Origin: Gracilibacter sp.
Lineage (GTDB): Bacteria > Bacillota > Desulfitobacteriia > Desulfitobacteriales > Syntrophobotulaceae
Assembly (NCBI GenBank): GCA_024637055.1
Contig: JAGXFZ010000076.1
Span: forward strand, 1-32,730
Direction: 5' to 3'
Length of the DNA stretch: 32,730 bases
Part shown: positions 1 to 10,468 of the stretch, piece after piece
How the letters are laid out: the number at the start of each line of letters is the position of its first letter
Position numbering within the stretch: position 1 is the first letter of the stretch
The notes under the pieces: model-generated
Seen by the model: only the letters and a program-made list of their open reading frames with translations
Databases searched by the model: none
Told to the model about the DNA's origin: nothing
Program-made: the position numbers and the translations under genes

Positions 1-14
1 GCAACTCTCCTTCA

Positions 15-31
15 ATACCCCCTTGGGGTAT
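15..31 (-). promoter_or_regulatory. CsoR-family-type operator palindrome
   Basis: A perfect 7-bp inverted repeat, ATACCCC-ctt-GGGGTAT, lies between a consensus promoter (42-70) and a Shine-Dalgarno-like AAGGAGAG (12-5 on the minus strand) that runs into the left window edge. The TACCCC...GGGGTA form matches the G-tract palindromes bound by CsoR-family repressors, which sense Cu(I), Ni(II) or Co(II), or sulfane sulfur (CstR type). It sits at about +5 to +21 of the predicted transcript, where a bound repressor would block RNA polymerase. The regulated gene would start just left of position 1 and is not visible, so the inducer cannot be chosen. The palindrome is seen directly; the regulator family is an inference. 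Confidence 0.6.
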
Positions 32-41
32 CTATGCTTTC

Positions 42-70
42 ATTATATGCCTCTATCCTTTTTATGTCAA
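42..70 (-). promoter_or_regulatory. consensus sigma-A promoter for a gene beyond the left edge
   Basis: On the minus strand TTGACA (70-65), a 17-bp spacer and TATAAT (47-42) form a perfect housekeeping promoter. Transcription should start near 35 and run off the left end of the window. It lies 68 bp downstream of the aspS stop, so it separates the next gene from the hisS-aspS unit. The palindrome at 15-31 is just downstream. I see no strong terminator between aspS and this promoter. Confidence 0.8.
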
Positions 71-137
71 TATGTTTTATCAATTCCATATATCCTATGA
101 GATAGAGATATTTGGAAAACACTTGGTTTATATCTTA

Positions 138-1907
138 TTATTTGACTTTTAGGTCTAATTTAATACTAAGATCTTTAAGTTGTTGTTGACTAACCTGGGA
201 AGGCGCTTGAGTAAGTAAACAACTGGCACTCTGAGTTTTAGGAAAAGCGATAACATCTCGAATATTATCTTTCATGGCTAAAATCATTATCAGTCTATCA
301 AGACCAAACGCAATTCCGCCGTGCGGTGGCGTGCCGTATTCAAAGGCATCTAGAAGATAACCAAACTTATCCTTAGCTTCTTCTGTACTGAGACCTAAAA
401 GTTGGAACATTTTTTCTTGGGTATCACGACGGTGTATCCTGATACTCCCTCCACCTAGTTCCATTCCGTTCAAGACCATATCATATGCTTTAGCTCTAGC
501 TTTCAGTGGCTCTGTATCAAGAATTTCGAGATCTTCATCCATCGGGCTTGTAAAAGGATGATGGATAGCTACGTATCTCTTCTCTTCCTCATCATATTCC
601 AGTAGCGGAAATCCTATAACCCAAAGGCAGTTTACTATATCGTCACGAATTAAATCTAGTCTTTTGGCAAGTTCTAATCTAAGATTGCCCAAAGCGTTGT
701 GCACAATCGCCTCTTTGTCAGCTACGAAGAAAAGTATGTCACCTGTTTCTCCGCCCATAGTAGCTATAAGATTCTTAATTTCATCTTCAGTGAAGAATTT
801 CAGAATCGGTGACTTTATGCCATCTTCTCCTATTACGATATAGGCTAAACCTTTAGCACCATATATATTTACATAATTAGTCAAGGCATCTATCTCTCTA
901 CGCGGCATACCAGCACAACCTTTAGCACAAATACCCTTGACTCTTCCGCCCTTAGCTATCACATCAGCGAATACTTTGAAGCCAGCATTCTTAACGATAT
1001 CTGCTACGTCTATTAGTTCTAAACCAAAACGAGTATCCGGCTTATCAGAACCGAATCTCTCCATAGCGTCATTATAACTTAAACGAGGGAAGGGTAGATT
1101 AATAGTCTTGCCTGTAATCTCCAGGAAAACTTTAGCTATCATTTCTTCCATAAGAGGCAGGATGTCATCCATATCAACAAAAGACATCTCTAAATCGATC
1201 TGAGTAAATTCAGGCTGACGATCTGCGCGTAAATCCTCATCTCTAAAACAACGGGTAATCTGAAAATACTTTTCCGTACCAGCAACCATTAATAGTTGTT
1301 TGAATAATTGTGGAGATTGCGGTAAGGCATAGAAACTTCCCTGATTGACTCTACTAGGAACTAAGTAATCTCTGGCACCTTCAGGGCTTGACTTCGTAAG
1401 CATTGGCGTCTCGATTTCAAGGAAATCTTGTTGGTCCAAGAAATTTCTTACCAACTGCATTACTTTATGTCTGATAATAAATATTTTTTGCATTTCTGGT
1501 CTGCGCAAATCTAAATACCTATATTTTAATCTTACACTTTCATCCACATCTACATTATCCTGGATATAGAAAGGAGGAGTCTTAGCCCTATTTAATATCG
1601 TTACACTCCCGGCCACTACTTCAATCTCTCCAGTTACCATATTTGGATTTTCTGAACCTTCTGGTCTCTTCCTTACTTTTCCTTCCAGAGATATAACATA
1701 TTCTGTGCGAATTTTTTCGGCTTCATCAAAACCAGAGCTAGTCATATCAGGATTAAAGACTGCCTGTACTAAACCAGAACGATCACGTAGGTCAACGAAG
1801 ATTACTCCGCCGTGGTCTCTTCTTGTTTGTACCCAACCATATAGATGTACGGTATCTCCCTCATTAGCTATAGTGAGATTACCAGCATTCGTTCTTTCTG
1901 CTAACAT
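138..1907 (-). CDS. aspS: aspartyl-tRNA synthetase, probably non-discriminating
   Basis: This class II synthetase charges tRNA-Asp in the cytoplasm. The chosen ATG (MLAERTNAG, 589 aa) has AGGAGGA seven bases upstream, which also overlaps the hisS stop codon (10-bp gap) and suggests translational coupling; a longer in-frame start at 1934 would lie inside hisS. Domains in order are the N-terminal OB-fold anticodon-binding domain (about 1-105), the catalytic core with motif 2 ([16 protein letters not shown]), a bacterial GAD insertion, and motif 3 ([13 protein letters not shown]) near the C-terminus. Length is normal for bacterial AspRS. Residues His32 (in RRDHGG) and Gly84 (in RPEGSENP) match, at the same 52-residue spacing, the His31/Gly83 pair linked to non-discriminating enzymes that also charge tRNA-Asn. 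Identity is certain; the relaxed specificity is inferred. Confidence 0.97.
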
Positions 1908-1917
1908 TTTAGTCCTC

Positions 1918-3198
1918 CTATAATAAAAATTCACTATTCTTTCGTTTTTCTAGCAAGTAATTTAGAATCTTATCTCTCGGTATTTCGGTCTGGTCACCCA
2001 GACTCATATCCCGTACGATTACGATGTTCTTGGTCAATTCTTCTTCTCCCATTATCAGCACGTATCTTGCACCCTGCCGATTAGCAAATTTCATTTGATT
2101 TTTCAGGCCTCTACCCATCAAATCCATTGTTGTGGAGATTCCTGCTTGTCTTAGTTCTGTGGAAAGTTTAAAACCTTCCTGTTGTGCTAAGTCCCCAAGG
2201 GCAGCTACTACAACTCCTCCTTCTGCGTCCTCTTCAAAATCTTTTTCTTGATTTTCGAGTACAGCCAATATTCTTTCTATTCCCATGGCAAAACCAATAC
2301 CCGGAGTTGTTGGACCTCCTATTTCTTCTACTAACCCATCGTAACGGCCTCCGCCACAGATTGCACTTTGTGCTCCTATCCCCTCGGCGATGACTTCAAA
2401 AGCGGTTTTTTGATAATAATCCAACCCTCTAACCATCTTCGGATTGATATGATAATCTATCTCTGCCATAGTCAGTAACTTCTGTACTTTAGTAAAATGT
2501 TCAGCACATTGTCCACAAAGAGTATCCAAGGTCGTAGGTACATCAGTTACTATAGCCTGACAAGATGGATTCTTGCAATCAAGAATCCTCATCGGATTTT
2601 TTTCAAATCTTACCTGACAATCATGACATAGGTCGGTCTTTTTGTCCTGTAAGAATTCCTGTAATTTATCACGGTGTTCTACCCTGCATACCGAACATCC
2701 CACTGAGTTGATATGTACTTTAATATTCTTGACACCTATTCTCCTAAAAAATTCCCAGATTAAGTGAATAACCTCTGCATCTACTAATGGGTTGTCTCCT
2801 CCTAAAACTTCGGCGCCAAATTGATGAAACTGACGAAATCGTCCTGCCTGAGTATTTTCATATCTGAACATTGGTCCTAGGTAATACAGTTTAATTGGTT
2901 GAGGTTGACCATATAGCTTGTTCTCCACATAGGCTCTACACACTGAAGCCGTCCCCTCTGGCCGTAATGTAATAGACCTATTGCCCTTATCCAAAAAAGT
3001 ATACATCTCTTTATTAACTATATCTGTAGTTTCCCCGACCCCCCTCTGAAACAATTCAGTTGCTTCAAATATTGGGGTCCTTATTTCTTGATACCCATAA
3101 TCAGAGCATATTTTTCGTATTTCATTCTCAAGATACTGCCATTTCTCAACACTACCTGGAACAATATCCTGAGTACCTTTAGGTCGTTTAATAGACAT
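1918..3198 (-). CDS. hisS: histidyl-tRNA synthetase
   Basis: HisRS attaches histidine to tRNA-His. The 426-residue protein begins [15 protein letters not shown], the usual N-terminus, behind a strong GAGAGGAGG ribosome site. Motif 2 ([15 protein letters not shown]), the HisRS-specific [12 protein letters not shown] loop and GGGRYDGL are present, followed by a C-terminal anticodon-binding domain. A Cys-rich insertion with several CxxC pairs (about 165-235) is usual in clostridial HisRS. It is followed 10 bp later by aspS, the classical Firmicute hisS-aspS pair. In many Firmicutes this pair has a T-box leader; I find no T-box GGUGGNACCGCG-type sequence in the 477 bp upstream, which is occupied by structured repeats instead. 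The near upstream region is AT-rich with a possible TAAAAT -10 but no clear -35. Confidence 0.98.
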
Positions 3199-6270: not shown

Positions 6271-8432
6271 TAATGATTTCCTCCGCTTTGGATTCTTTCT
6301 ACAACAGTTATATCCTTAATTCTTCGTATTTTCTGCAGAACAAAGTTTAGATGTTCCAGATTACGTGCTTCGATTTTCAGGTTAACATAAGATACATTAT
6401 CTTTACCAACTCGTGCATTTATGGCCAACATATGCGTTCTAGTCTCCATTATAACACTCATTATATCAGTTACAAAGCGTTCCCTATCCATGCCGATGAT
6501 TTCGATATCTACTGGATATACTGAATCGATATCCTGCTCCCATTCTACTTCCACTAGTCTTTCCTGGTCCTCTGGAGCCATACCGAAGAGTTCATTACAG
6601 TCTTTACGATGAACTGAGACTCCTCTTCCTCTAGTAATATAGCCAACTATGTCATCACCAGGAAGTGGATTACAGCATCGAGAAAAGCGGACAAGAATAT
6701 TATCGACACCTTTCACCCTAACTCCATGAGAAGACTTACTAGGAGGCCGTTGTTCACCCTGTTGCAAATGATTTACTTCTACTTCTTCCTTAATAATATC
6801 ATCCTTTAACCGACCAAGTGCTCTTTTAAAGGTAATGGCACCGTCGCCCAACGTAGCATATAGATCGTCATTGCCGTTAAAGTTAAAACTTTTAGCAAGT
6901 TTTTGGATATTCTCATTCTTCAAGGCTGTAGAAGGTTCCATTCCCATCTTACGTGCTTCCTTCTCTAGACCATCGCGACCTCTCAAAATATTCTCTTCTC
7001 TTTTTTCTTTGCGGAACCATTGTCGGATTCTATTTTTGGCCTGAGACGTTTTAACAAGACAAACCCAATCCCTACTCGGTCCGGTTGGATTCTTGTTTGT
7101 CAAGATTTCAATAATATCACCGTTTTTTAATTTGGTATCAAGGGTTACGATACGTCCATTAATTTTGGCACCAATACAACCATGACCAACATCAGTATGG
7201 ACACGGTAGGCAAAATCAATAGGGCAAGAGTCTGCTGGCAGTTCAACTACATCACCTTTTGGGGTAAAGACAAAGACGGTATCAGCAAAGAGATCCAATT
7301 TCAAGGACTCCATGAATTCCCCGGCATCGCGTGAATCATGCTGCCACTCCAATAGTTGACGAAGCCAAGAGAGCTTCTGCTCAAAATTATTCTCAACTTT
7401 TTTGCCTTCTTTATATTTCCAATGGGCTGCAATTCCATACTCTGCTGTTCGATGCATCTCCCACGTTCTGATTTGGATCTCAAAAGGTTCACCGTGGTTA
7501 CTAATTAAAGTTGTATGAAGTGATTGATACATATTGGGTTTAGGCATCGCAATATAGTCTTTGAACCTGCCTGGAATAGGTTTCCACAAGGTATGAATAA
7601 TTCCTAAAGAGCCATAACAATCGTTCACAGTTTCAACAATAACTCTAATCGCAGTCAGGTCAAATATTTCACTTAAATCTTTACCTTGGTTAAGCATCTT
7701 TTTATATATACTATAGAAATTCTTCGGTCGCCCAGCAATATCCGCTTCTATCCCTACTTCTTCAAGTTTAACTTTCAGCACCTCTATGACTTCGTTAATC
7801 TGTTCCTGTCTTTCTTTTCTTTTAAAAGCTATCCCTTCAACCAAATCATAGTATTCTTGCGTATTAAGAAATCTGAATGCTAAATCTTCTAATTCCCATT
7901 TGATCCGAAAAATCCCGAGTCTATTAGCTAGAGGGGCATAAATCTCTAGTGTCTCTTGTGATATTTCCTTTTGTTTTTTTTCTGATTGGAATTTTAAAGT
8001 CCTCATATTATGCAAACGGTCAGCTAGCTTAATTAATACTACCCTGATATCTTTAGCCATAGCTAAAAACATCTTGCGTAGGTTTTCAACCTGGACTTCC
8101 ATTTTACTTTTGTATTCTATCTTTCCTAATTTGGTTACTCCATCGACCAAGTCGGCAACTTCCGGACCGAAAACTTTACGGATATTTTCAAGTGTCTTTT
8201 CTGTATCTTCGGCAACATCATGAAGCAGTGCTGCAATAATTGTTGAATCATCCATCTCTAATTCAGCTAAGATAGAGGCGACCTCAAGGGGATGATTAAT
8301 ATACTCTTCGCCAGAATTACGCCTTTGGCCACTATGGGCATCTTGGGCATAGCGATAAGCCTTTTCAATTTTTTCAAAGTTATACTGAGCATTATTAAAT
8401 AATAATTTATCCTTGAGTGCCTGGATATCCAT
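6270..8432 (-). CDS. relA: bifunctional (p)ppGpp synthetase/hydrolase Rel
   Basis: This 720-residue protein makes and degrades (p)ppGpp in the stringent response. The N-terminal HD hydrolase domain is intact (His47, His71-Asp72, then Glu75-Asp76 in LLHDVAEDT). The synthetase domain (about 235-345) has [11 protein letters not shown], the RFKD motif at 289-292 (the RXKD form of bifunctional Rel enzymes) and [12 protein letters not shown] domain (about 385-445), a Cys/His conserved region with [10 protein letters not shown] and HRKDC, and a C-terminal ACT/RRM domain (about 650-717) follow. It starts 8 bp after recJ and overlaps dtd by one base. With both catalytic halves intact it is a single long Rel, also called rel or spoT. 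Confidence 0.97.
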
Positions 8433-8440
8433 AAGTCACC

Positions 8441-10468
8441 TCAAATTGTTTTGCTTAGAATTCTGTATCGTAAAGAGCGATTCAAATCTGTTTTATCAAT
8501 CTTATTTACCTTTAGATAAAATGGCCCCGTTCCTCCCACCCAGCTTATAAGGGCTAACTCTTCAAAGACCTTTACTAAATTCAACTCTGATTCTACTATT
8601 TTTTCATCCGGTTGCCAACAAAAACTATCAGCATCCTGAGCCATCTCCTTCAGACGTTTATAAAAGTTTACAAGCATCTCGCGGGTGAGAGAGAAGTCTT
8701 CCTCTGTTTCGCGACCAACAAGTTCTCCTTTTTCTTCTTGCTCTTCTACGGTGCTCGCTATCTCAGGTAAGCTAGAGCTTACTGAATCACGATAATCCTT
8801 AATGATAGCCTGTAATTTTTCTTCTCCAGTAAAAGAGTTAGATTCAAGGTAATATATAATATCAATATTATCAATTTTTCTCAATCGTTCAAGTTCATTG
8901 CCTTTTTTAAAGGCAAGAGCTTCTAGAGTCTTATCTTTCTCTTCTATAATTAACTTAAGGTGGTCCTTTTCTTTGCCTATAGCGAATATCTTACTAATTT
9001 TTAATCCACAAGACATTAACATAGGTGCTGGATTACCTGCTCCAAAAGGGGCCATCTGCTCCAATCCTTTAAGCAAATCTATACTTAGCTCATTCCAGGA
9101 TACCCTAGAATCAACATTGTAGGTAACTGCAAATGATAGATCATCAGTCTTGATCATTTTGTTAAGTTCATTTCTCAGAGAGTCTATATTTTTCACTGGT
9201 AATGAAAAGCCTGCTGCTTGCTTATGTCCTCCGTACTTATCTAACAAGTGAGCCTGCTGATCCAATTCTTTGATAACATTGTAATCGGGAACGCCTCTAG
9301 CTGAACCTTTGGCAGTTTCTCCATCTTCCGTAATCAGAAAAACTGGACGATGGTACCTTTCAACAAGCCTTGACGCAACTATTCCAATTACGCCATGATG
9401 CCAAGTTGCTGAAGATAATACAATTACATTGGGTATCTCTTCGAATTCTAATTGTTCTTGTATCTCAGCAAAGATTTCCTTTTCGACAGTTTGACGCAGA
9501 GAATTTTCCTTACTTAAATCCTTAGCAAAACTTTGGGCATCCTGAAAATCTTCTTCTAATAATAAATTTAAGGCCATTTGTGCCGTATCCATCCGACCTG
9601 CTGCATTAATTCTGGGTGCTACAATAAATGATATTTGTCCCGATTTCAGCGATTTTCCCCATAACCCACATTCTACCAGCATTGCCTTTAAACCAGGATG
9701 CATCGTATTTTCCATCTTCTGTAAACCAAACTTGACAATTATTCTGTTCTCACCGGTTAATGGAACAATATCGGCTATAGTCCCTAAAGCAACTAAATCA
9801 AGATAGTCTAGTTCAGAAGTGGTATCGTCTAGAGACTCTCGGAAATAGCTGAACAGGGCCTGAACCAGTTTATAGGCTACTCCTACTCCTGCGAGGTATT
9901 CATAGGGATATCCTGAATCCTTTACTTTTGGATTGAGGATGCCTACAGCATCAGGTAGTTCTGCTAAGGGTTCGTGATGATCGGTAATAATAACATCTAT
10001 ACCTTCACTGGCTGCTAATTGCGTTTCCTTTATAGCCGTAATACCGCAATCTACTGTTACAATCAAATCAACCTTACTTCCCATAGCCTTTTTAATTATT
10101 TCAGTATGAAGACCATATCCTTCTTCTCTACTGGGGATATGAACCACCACATTAAAACCCAATCTTCTAAACACTTTATACAATAAGGCTGTACCAGTAA
10201 CTCCATCCGCATCGTAATCACCATAAACAAGAACTTTCTCCTCCAGCTTGTGAGCTCTGGCCAGTCTTAGCACTACTCTCTCCATGTCCTTAAAAAGAAA
10301 AGGAGAATGAAATTCAAATAATGAGGGTTGTAGATATTCAAGAATACTAGTTAACGAAGTATACCCTCTCTGGAAGAGAATATCTATTAGGATTGAAGAA
10401 ATCCCCACTTTTTGCAAATTATTAATAGTTAGCTCTCTTTTTTGTGATAAAACCCACTTATTACTCAA
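8441..10468 (-). CDS. recJ: single-stranded-DNA-specific exonuclease RecJ
   Basis: RecJ degrades single-stranded DNA 5' to 3' in recombination and repair. The DHH-family core is clear: DYDADG (Asp84, Asp86, Asp88), VDCG (Asp140), DHHEP (Asp163, His164, His165), and later GVAYKLVQAL and the DHHA1 motif around YGGHKQAAGFSL. An OB-fold-like region follows the DHHA1 domain. The protein is 675 aa, somewhat shorter than many Firmicute RecJ proteins (often over 750 aa), because the C-terminal extension is reduced; about residues 580-640 are acidic and low-complexity. It sits 15 bp after the LapA-domain gene and 8 bp before rel, forming a lapA-recJ-rel-dtd run. Confidence 0.95.
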   Translation of the reverse strand: MSNKWVLSQKRELTINNLQKVGISSILIDILFQRGYTSLTSILEYLQPSLFEFHSPFLFKDMERVVLRLARAHKLEEKVLVYGDYDADGVTGTALLYKVFRRLGFNVVVHIPSREEGYGLHTEIIKKAMGSKVDLIVTVDCGITAIKETQLAASEGIDVIITDHHEPLAELPDAVGILNPKVKDSGYPYEYLAGVGVAYKLVQALFSYFRESLDDTTSELDYLDLVALGTIADIVPLTGENRIIVKFGLQKMENTMHPGLKAMLVECGLWGKSLKSGQISFIVAPRINAAGRMDTAQMALNLLLEEDFQDAQSFAKDLSKENSLRQTVEKEIFAEIQEQLEFEEIPNVIVLSSATWHHGVIGIVASRLVERYHRPVFLITEDGETAKGSARGVPDYNVIKELDQQAHLLDKYGGHKQAAGFSLPVKNIDSLRNELNKMIKTDDLSFAVTYNVDSRVSWNELSIDLLKGLEQMAPFGAGNPAPMLMSCGLKISKIFAIGKEKDHLKLIIEEKDKTLEALAFKKGNELERLRKIDNIDIIYYLESNSFTGEEKLQAIIKDYRDSVSSSLPEIASTVEEQEEKGELVGRETEEDFSLTREMLVNFYKRLKEMAQDADSFCWQPDEKIVESELNLVKVFEELALISWVGGTGPFYLKVNKIDKTDLNRSLRYRILSKTI

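What the first reader, a model, noticed from the sequence alone, without database searches (positions are those of the whole stretch)
15..70. Metal- or sulfur-sensing type operator with a perfect promoter at the left edge
A perfect TTGACA-17-TATAAT promoter is followed at about +5 by ATACCCC-ctt-GGGGTAT, then AAGGAGAG at the window edge. The palindrome has the G-tract form of CsoR-family operators (Cu, Ni/Co, formaldehyde or persulfide sensors). Its position after +1 suggests a block on elongation or promoter escape. The gene it controls, just left of position 1, is probably a copper exporter or chaperone, a sulfur-handling gene, or the regulator itself.
Basis: partly seen in the sequence, partly recalled or inferred. 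Interest (0 to 1): 0.5.

Follow-up and report, generated by a model that had tools for sequence, protein, structure and literature searches.

The report
CsoR-type switch before a thioredoxin operon
A very strong promoter with a repressor-binding palindrome just behind it sits at the end of this contig; in related bacteria the same switch controls a CsoR-family sensor gene and a thioredoxin gene, which points to a thiol or sulfur stress response more than to a copper exporter.

Summary
The window starts at a contig end, so the controlled gene is missing. In 47 of 61 genomes searched a CsoR-family repressor gene is found, in 43 of them within about 450 nt of aspS; 46 of 47 have thioredoxin next, 46 of 47 carry this palindrome closely (one with a longer spacer) and 43 a perfect promoter. 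Here, the gene that follows trx in the sister genome lies 194 bp from the end of contig C8, leaving a gap of about 0.87 kb that fits csoR and trx. Over 41 genomes the exact palindrome occurs 33 times (reversed control 0); 31 precede a short list of genes, mostly thioredoxin, ferredoxin, Fe-S, selenoprotein, sulfurtransferase or permease genes. No copper ATPase was seen near the 36 other sites checked. Best reading: autoregulation of csoR-trx through a type 2 CsoR operator. The effector is unproven: the window's family keeps the Cu(I) ligands but has lost the second-shell Tyr, and its neighbours suggest sulfur or thiol sensing; Cu(I) stays a live rival. Known kind of switch; I found no description of this operon or regulon.

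The parts
65..70 (-). -35 hexamer TTGACA
   Evidence: sequence; perfect -35/-10 pair in 43 of 47 orthologous promoters
42..47 (-). -10 hexamer TATAAT, 17 nt from the -35
   Evidence: sequence; conserved as above
15..31 (-). operator ATACCCC-AAG-GGGGTAT, type 2 CsoR form (TAC-N9-GTA), about +5 to +21
   Evidence: exact palindrome; same place in relatives; fits the published type 2 consensus
5..12 (-). ribosome-binding site AAGGAGAG of the missing first gene
   Evidence: sequence; in the sister genome the csoR start codon lies 12 nt after the palindrome, which would be next to base 1
138..1934 (-). aspS, the gene upstream on the same strand; the synteny anchor
   Evidence: tRNA-synt_2, GAD and anticodon-binding domains; ortholog next to csoR in relatives

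Best explanation
This is the promoter-operator of an autoregulated operon: a CsoR-family repressor gene followed by thioredoxin. A near-ideal vegetative promoter drives the operon. The encoded repressor binds the type 2 G-tract palindrome at about +5 to +21 and keeps RNA polymerase from starting or leaving the promoter. When a signal acts on the cysteine/histidine site of the repressor it lets go, and the regulator and thioredoxin are made, together with other operator-bearing genes of this genome (small ferredoxin at C70; SBF permease at C3 and a CC/Se-motif selenoprotein gene at C50, both with one mismatch; less surely a methyltransferase and a rhodanese). Shown from sequence: promoter, operator, conservation, neighbours, further sites. 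Inferred: that the missing gene is this csoR, the start of transcription, binding, repression, one regulator for all sites, and the effector. In the window's family I think a thiol-reactive sulfur species such as persulfide most likely (about 0.5 for that part alone). The confidence below is for the operon and the operator type, not for the effector.
For: Same palindrome 3' of aspS ahead of csoR and trx in G001, G003, G013, G023. Ortholog (E<1e-20) in 47 of 61 genomes; 43 of 47 within 446 nt of aspS and 46 of 47 with trx next; palindrome score 12-14 of 14 in 46 of 47, perfect promoter in 43 of 47, -10 to palindrome 10-11 nt in 39 of 47. In this genome the gene that follows trx in the sister sits 194 bp from the end of C8, a gap of about 0.87 kb that fits csoR and trx. 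33 exact palindromes in 41 genomes, 0 for the reversed control. The sister regulator is PF02583 (95.1 bits, cut-off 22.8). Gene types at the sites.
Against: The window's own csoR and trx are not in the assembly, so the target is inferred. No binding or expression data. Of the 47 operators 17 are identical and from one genus-like group, so they are not independent. In more distant Clostridia many orthologs lack this palindrome (24 of 79 score below 11) or trx (26 of 79). Exact sites also occur in two genomes without the ortholog (G028, G030), so another CsoR can use this palindrome. Outside the window's family the regulator keeps the full copper fingerprint, which speaks against a sulfur effector there. 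In this genome, counts at up to 2 mismatches are hardly above the control (11 against 9).
Confidence: 0.82

Rival explanations
1. Same operon and operator, but the signal is Cu(I): the regulator is a copper CsoR whose operon makes thioredoxin to protect thiols from copper.
For: All 47 orthologs keep both ligand cysteines and 46 of 47 the ligand His; outside the window's family 30 of 31 also have second-shell Tyr and 30 of 31 Glu, the fingerprint of Cu(I) sensors (PMC4235346, passages). The nearest solved chain is the copper CsoR 4m1p. The operator matches copper CsoR sites of Streptomyces.
Against: In the window's family 0 of 16 have the Tyr (13 have Cys) and 1 of 16 the Glu, with Asp in 5. 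No CopA-like gene near the 36 sites checked. This genome has a separate csoR-copA pair with another palindrome. PMC4235346 itself says the ligand pattern does not predict the metal.
Confidence: 0.27
2. The operon is as described, but a different CsoR paralog of the genome (for example the lone gene on C71) is the main repressor of these palindromes.
For: The genome has at least three other CsoR-family genes; no G-tract palindrome was found upstream of the C71 gene; G028 and G030 have exact sites without the ortholog.
Against: Exact sites occur in 18 of 29 genomes with the ortholog and 2 of 11 without (p 0.031, kinship not corrected). G005, G014, G018 and G022 have only a gene scoring like C71 and no site.
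Confidence: 0.12
3. The palindrome works as an RNA hairpin: a leader that stabilises or attenuates the mRNA, or a terminator for the opposite strand.
For: Window 1-35 minus folds into an 8-pair hairpin, -10.4 kcal/mol, z -2.55; the terminator scan flags it on the plus strand, with a poor T run.
Against: Across 47 relatives TACCC and GGGTA are fixed with no compensatory change, while the outermost pair is complementary in 7 of 47 and the innermost in 14 of 47. The same letters precede unrelated genes. No Rfam family reaches its cut-off in window 1-400; one chance-level match lies elsewhere.
Confidence: 0.04
4. Chance: an ordinary promoter next to a fortuitous palindrome.
For: Promoter-like hexamer pairs with 1-2 mismatches are common in this window.
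Against: Promoter and palindrome recur together at the same spacing in relatives; 33 exact palindromes against 0 for the reversed control.
Confidence: 0.01

Closest known systems
Type 2 operator of copper CsoR in Streptomyces lividans (PMC3902906, passages seen)
   Same: Consensus ATATACCCCTNAGGGGTATAT with TAC and GTA nine bases apart; the window has ATACCCCAAGGGGGTAT with the same spacing; one of the known sites also controls csoR itself
   Different: There the other targets are copZA; here the neighbour gene is thioredoxin and no copper gene was seen at the sites checked
ScCsoR, sulfane-sulfur sensor of Streptomyces coelicolor (PMC7533328, passages seen)
   Same: CsoR-like repressor, site ATACC-N6-GGTAT, controls a rhodanese; a site at -9 from the start
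   Different: Its circuit has persulfide dioxygenase and a sulfite transporter; thioredoxin and selenoproteins are not mentioned in the passages seen
CstR, persulfide sensor of Staphylococcus aureus (PMC5480029, passages seen)
   Same: CsoR-family repressor with two reactive cysteines at the places of C38 and C67
   Different: Solved CstR-like chain 7mq1 has Asn where this family has His; S. aureus CstR is said to control one operon with sulfide oxidation genes
TTHA1953 of Thermus thermophilus (PMC10318464, passages seen)
   Same: CsoR-family regulator of scattered sulfur genes; first gene of one target operon is a thioredoxin (SoxW)
   Different: Its site TACNNTACNNNNGTANNGTA lacks the G-tracts, and its targets lie far from its own gene

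Membership tests
Type 2 CsoR/RcnR operator | two short G/C tracts with 2-4 bases between them | tested here: met
   CCCC-AAG-GGGG; definition from PMC3902906
Type 2 CsoR/RcnR operator | TAC/GTA inverted repeat nine bases apart | tested here: met
   sequence; kept in 46 of 47 relatives, ten bases apart in L089
Type 2 CsoR/RcnR operator | bound by a CsoR-family protein | not testable with these tools
   needs purified protein
CsoR/RcnR (DUF156) family, the controlled gene | PF02583 domain over its cut-off | tested here: inconclusive
   met for the sister ortholog (95.1 bits, cut-off 22.8); the window's own gene is in an assembly gap
Copper CsoR subfamily | ligand triad Cys-His-Cys | tested here: met
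   16 of 16 in the window's family; 30 of 31 elsewhere
Copper CsoR subfamily | second-shell Tyr and Glu (or Asp) | tested here: not met
   window's family: Tyr 0 of 16, Glu 1 and Asp 5 of 16; elsewhere Tyr 30 and Glu 30 of 31
Copper CsoR subfamily | controls copper export genes | tested here: not met
   no CopA-like hit in 35 loci with 36 sites
CstR subfamily | two cysteines at the X and Z places | tested here: met
   47 of 47
CstR subfamily | no His at the Y place | tested here: not met
   His in 46 of 47; Asn in 7mq1
CstR subfamily | loses DNA on reaction with persulfide | not testable with these tools
   needs purified protein

The most novel reading that the evidence does not exclude
An apparently undescribed regulon of Clostridia: a CsoR-family sensor beside aspS, in the window's family with a Cys-Cys...His...Cys site that has left the copper second shell, senses reactive sulfur or thiol stress and controls thioredoxin, a small ferredoxin, IscA/HesB-like and CC/Se-motif selenoproteins, rhodanese, DsrE/DUF302 proteins and an SBF permease through one G-tract operator set behind an ideal promoter.
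Probability: 0.38. Interest if true: 0.6.

Novelty: new member of a known kind. Interest (0 to 1): 0.42.

Why it matters
It links a CsoR-family switch to thioredoxin in anaerobes and one operator to several genes of unknown role (selenoproteins with in-frame TGA, the small ferredoxin, the SBF permease), which gives those genes a shared, testable signal. The split in second-shell residues between two families that share the operon is a natural comparison for how copper and sulfur sensing part ways in this fold.

Tried and rejected
Chance: rejected. Known leader RNA: only a chance-level match on the other strand. Copper exporter as target: not seen (flanks read were at least 500 nt on the shorter side for L137, 1.0 kb for L062 and about 1.5 kb or more for the rest). 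NCBIfam: the regulator hits RicR, FrmR and RcnR models far below their cut-offs, so no subfamily name follows.

Own-genome sites at up to 2 mismatches are near the control (11 against 9), so I used only those with 0 or 1 mismatch (2 and 4); the 1-mismatch sites stay uncertain, the C108 rhodanese site most. One search chose wrong start codons for four orthologs (L102, L103, L104, L115) and missed their operators; its control (3 of 580 windows of 250 nt) may include those true operators and is an upper bound. One search repeated the counts without that fault. One search read the B and C places one residue off; one search corrects them.

Literature: searches for this operon or regulon (listings, one paper by passages) showed none; only open-licence papers are held. 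The one paper (PMC9768040) names CsoR, thioredoxin and Desulfitobacterium but was not opened. An exact scan of genome contigs for 28 bases of the window found nothing, though the tool may leave out the window's own records.

Full report
What is there. On the minus strand the window reads TTGACA (70-65), 17 nt, TATAAT (47-42), ten bases, ATACCCC-AAG-GGGGTAT (31-15), then TGAAGGAGAGTTGC to base 1. The palindrome is the only exact match in the window and the promoter the only 12/12 match with a 17-nt spacer. The upstream gene on the same strand is aspS, 138-1934. Base 1 is the end of contig C1 of a genome of 129 contigs, 84.9% complete, so the controlled gene lies in an assembly gap.

What the missing gene is. 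The same palindrome lies 3' of aspS in the sister genome G001 and in G003, G013 and G023. The CsoR-family gene and the thioredoxin with WCGPC behind it were read in L072, L066 and L068 and found in all four by tblastn. G001 contig C7 has the length and gene of LOEZ01000007.1, Gracilibacter sp. BRH_c7a. A search of 61 genomes (G000 and 60 relatives) with the sister regulator found the ortholog (E<1e-20) in 47; the window's genome has only three more distant CsoR-family genes and no close relative of the sister thioredoxin (best 34% identity). In 43 of the 47 the gene starts within 446 nt of the end of aspS (3 loci did not reach aspS, one gap is 1241 nt), and 46 of 47 have thioredoxin downstream; the exception is L119. 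In the sister the gene after trx is a 359-codon ORF; here its relative (78%) sits on contig C8, whose end is 194 bp beyond it. By the sister's spacing the gap between C1 and C8 is about 0.87 kb, the room for csoR and trx. This is inference from synteny.

Conservation of the switch. Of the 47 orthologs 46 have a palindrome scoring 12-14 of 14 upstream; L089 scores 10 because its TAC and GTA are ten bases apart instead of nine. A 12/12 promoter (spacer 16-18 allowed) is present in 43 of 47 and at least 11/12 in 46; L078 has none recognisable. The distance from -10 to the palindrome is 10-11 nt in 39 of 47. Seventeen of the 47 operators are identical, so they are not independent. TACCC and GGGTA are fixed, L089 aside, while the outermost and innermost pairs are complementary in only 7 and 14 of 47, with no compensatory change: a DNA recognition pattern rather than an RNA stem, although this leader can fold. 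In named genomes, 80 loci (the best of 248) were read; of 79 with enough upstream DNA, 64 have aspS upstream, 53 trx downstream, 54 a promoter of at least 10/12 and 55 a palindrome scoring at least 11. Many of these are the same species as the 47, and the more distant ones often lack the palindrome or trx.

A regulon. In 41 genomes the exact palindrome occurs 33 times, in 21 genomes; the pattern read backwards occurs 0 times. By the sites precede, within about 135 nt: csoR-trx 5 (the window's by inference), trx behind another csoR 2, small 4Fe-4S ferredoxin 7, IscA/HesB-like gene with in-frame TGA 3 (PF01521 over its cut-off), a relative of the C50 selenoprotein candidate 1, SBF-type permease 3, DUF302 or DsrE-like 3, DGC 2, RACo-type activator 2, rhodanese 1, C_GCAxxG 1, NapH-like 1; 2 sites are unassigned (G040 C14, G026 C15). 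DGC and DUF302 have no settled function, so 'sulfur and redox' is the drift of the list, not the label of each. The window's genome also has four sites with one mismatch: SBF permease (C3), CC/Se-motif gene with in-frame TGA (C50), ArsM-like methyltransferase (C89; 211 bits, under that model's cut-off) and, least sure, rhodanese (C108). No CopA-like hit fell in the 35 loci that hold 32 exact sites and these 4.

Which signal. The published fingerprint of copper CsoR is Cys-His-Cys with second-shell Tyr and Glu (PMC4235346, passages). The 31 orthologs outside the window's family nearly all have it (His 30, Tyr 30, Glu 30). The 16 of the window's family keep Cys-His-Cys in all 16 but have Cys (13), Ser, Pro or Gly in place of Tyr, and Glu in 1 or Asp in 5 at the other place. 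The same paper says that the ligand pattern does not predict the metal. Type 2 operators serve copper sensors (PMC3902906) and a similar site serves a sulfane-sulfur sensor (PMC7533328). So the operator names the family, not the effector. The genes around the sites favour sulfur, thiol or Fe-S stress; Cu(I) is not excluded, above all outside the window's family.

Which regulator. Exact sites occur in 18 of 29 genomes with the aspS-linked ortholog and 2 of 11 without it (p 0.031, kinship not corrected, G000 left out). The two exceptions, G028 and G030, are of a third family; in G028, and also in G026, one site lies between another csoR and trx. In the window's genome the csoR-copA pair (C25) and the csoR-like gene on C49, which is followed by an SQR-like flavoprotein, a DsrC-like and a DsrE-like gene, each carry a different G-tract palindrome behind a promoter-like stretch; none was found before the C71 gene.

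Mechanism. Shown: letters, positions, conservation, neighbours. Inferred: the start of transcription, binding, repression by occluding initiation or promoter escape at about +5 to +21, and release on a signal at the cysteines. An elongation roadblock cannot be told apart from occlusion with these data.

Noticed in passing
L021 (G000 C50) 2760-3044, minus: Gene with an in-frame TGA in a Cys-Gly-Ser-TGA motif, NCBIfam CC/Se motif family (seleno)protein (48.2 bits, cut-off 40), 17 nt behind a one-mismatch copy of the palindrome.
   Followed up: partly
L016 (G000 C49) 190-2744, plus: csoR-like gene without His at the ligand place, followed by an SQR-like flavoprotein, a DsrC-like and a DsrE-like gene; a different G-tract palindrome lies behind a promoter-like stretch.
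   Followed up: partly
L017 (G000 C25) 6902-9687, minus: csoR next to a copper-translocating P-type ATPase, with a longer-spaced G-tract palindrome upstream (ATACCCCC...GGGGGG).
   Followed up: partly
L132 (G028 C33) 2092-3049: Divergent DUF302 and DsrE/YedF-like genes with two exact copies of the palindrome between them.
   Followed up: partly
L023 (G000 C108) 8761 to about 9165, minus: Rhodanese-like gene whose similarity reaches upstream of its first ATG; no ATG, GTG or TTG was obvious at the expected start, perhaps an unusual start codon.
   Followed up: no
L133 2672-2965 plus, L134 2119-2412 minus, L125 2608-2895 plus: IscA/HesB-like genes with an in-frame TGA in a Gly-rich motif, each behind an exact palindrome.
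   Followed up: partly
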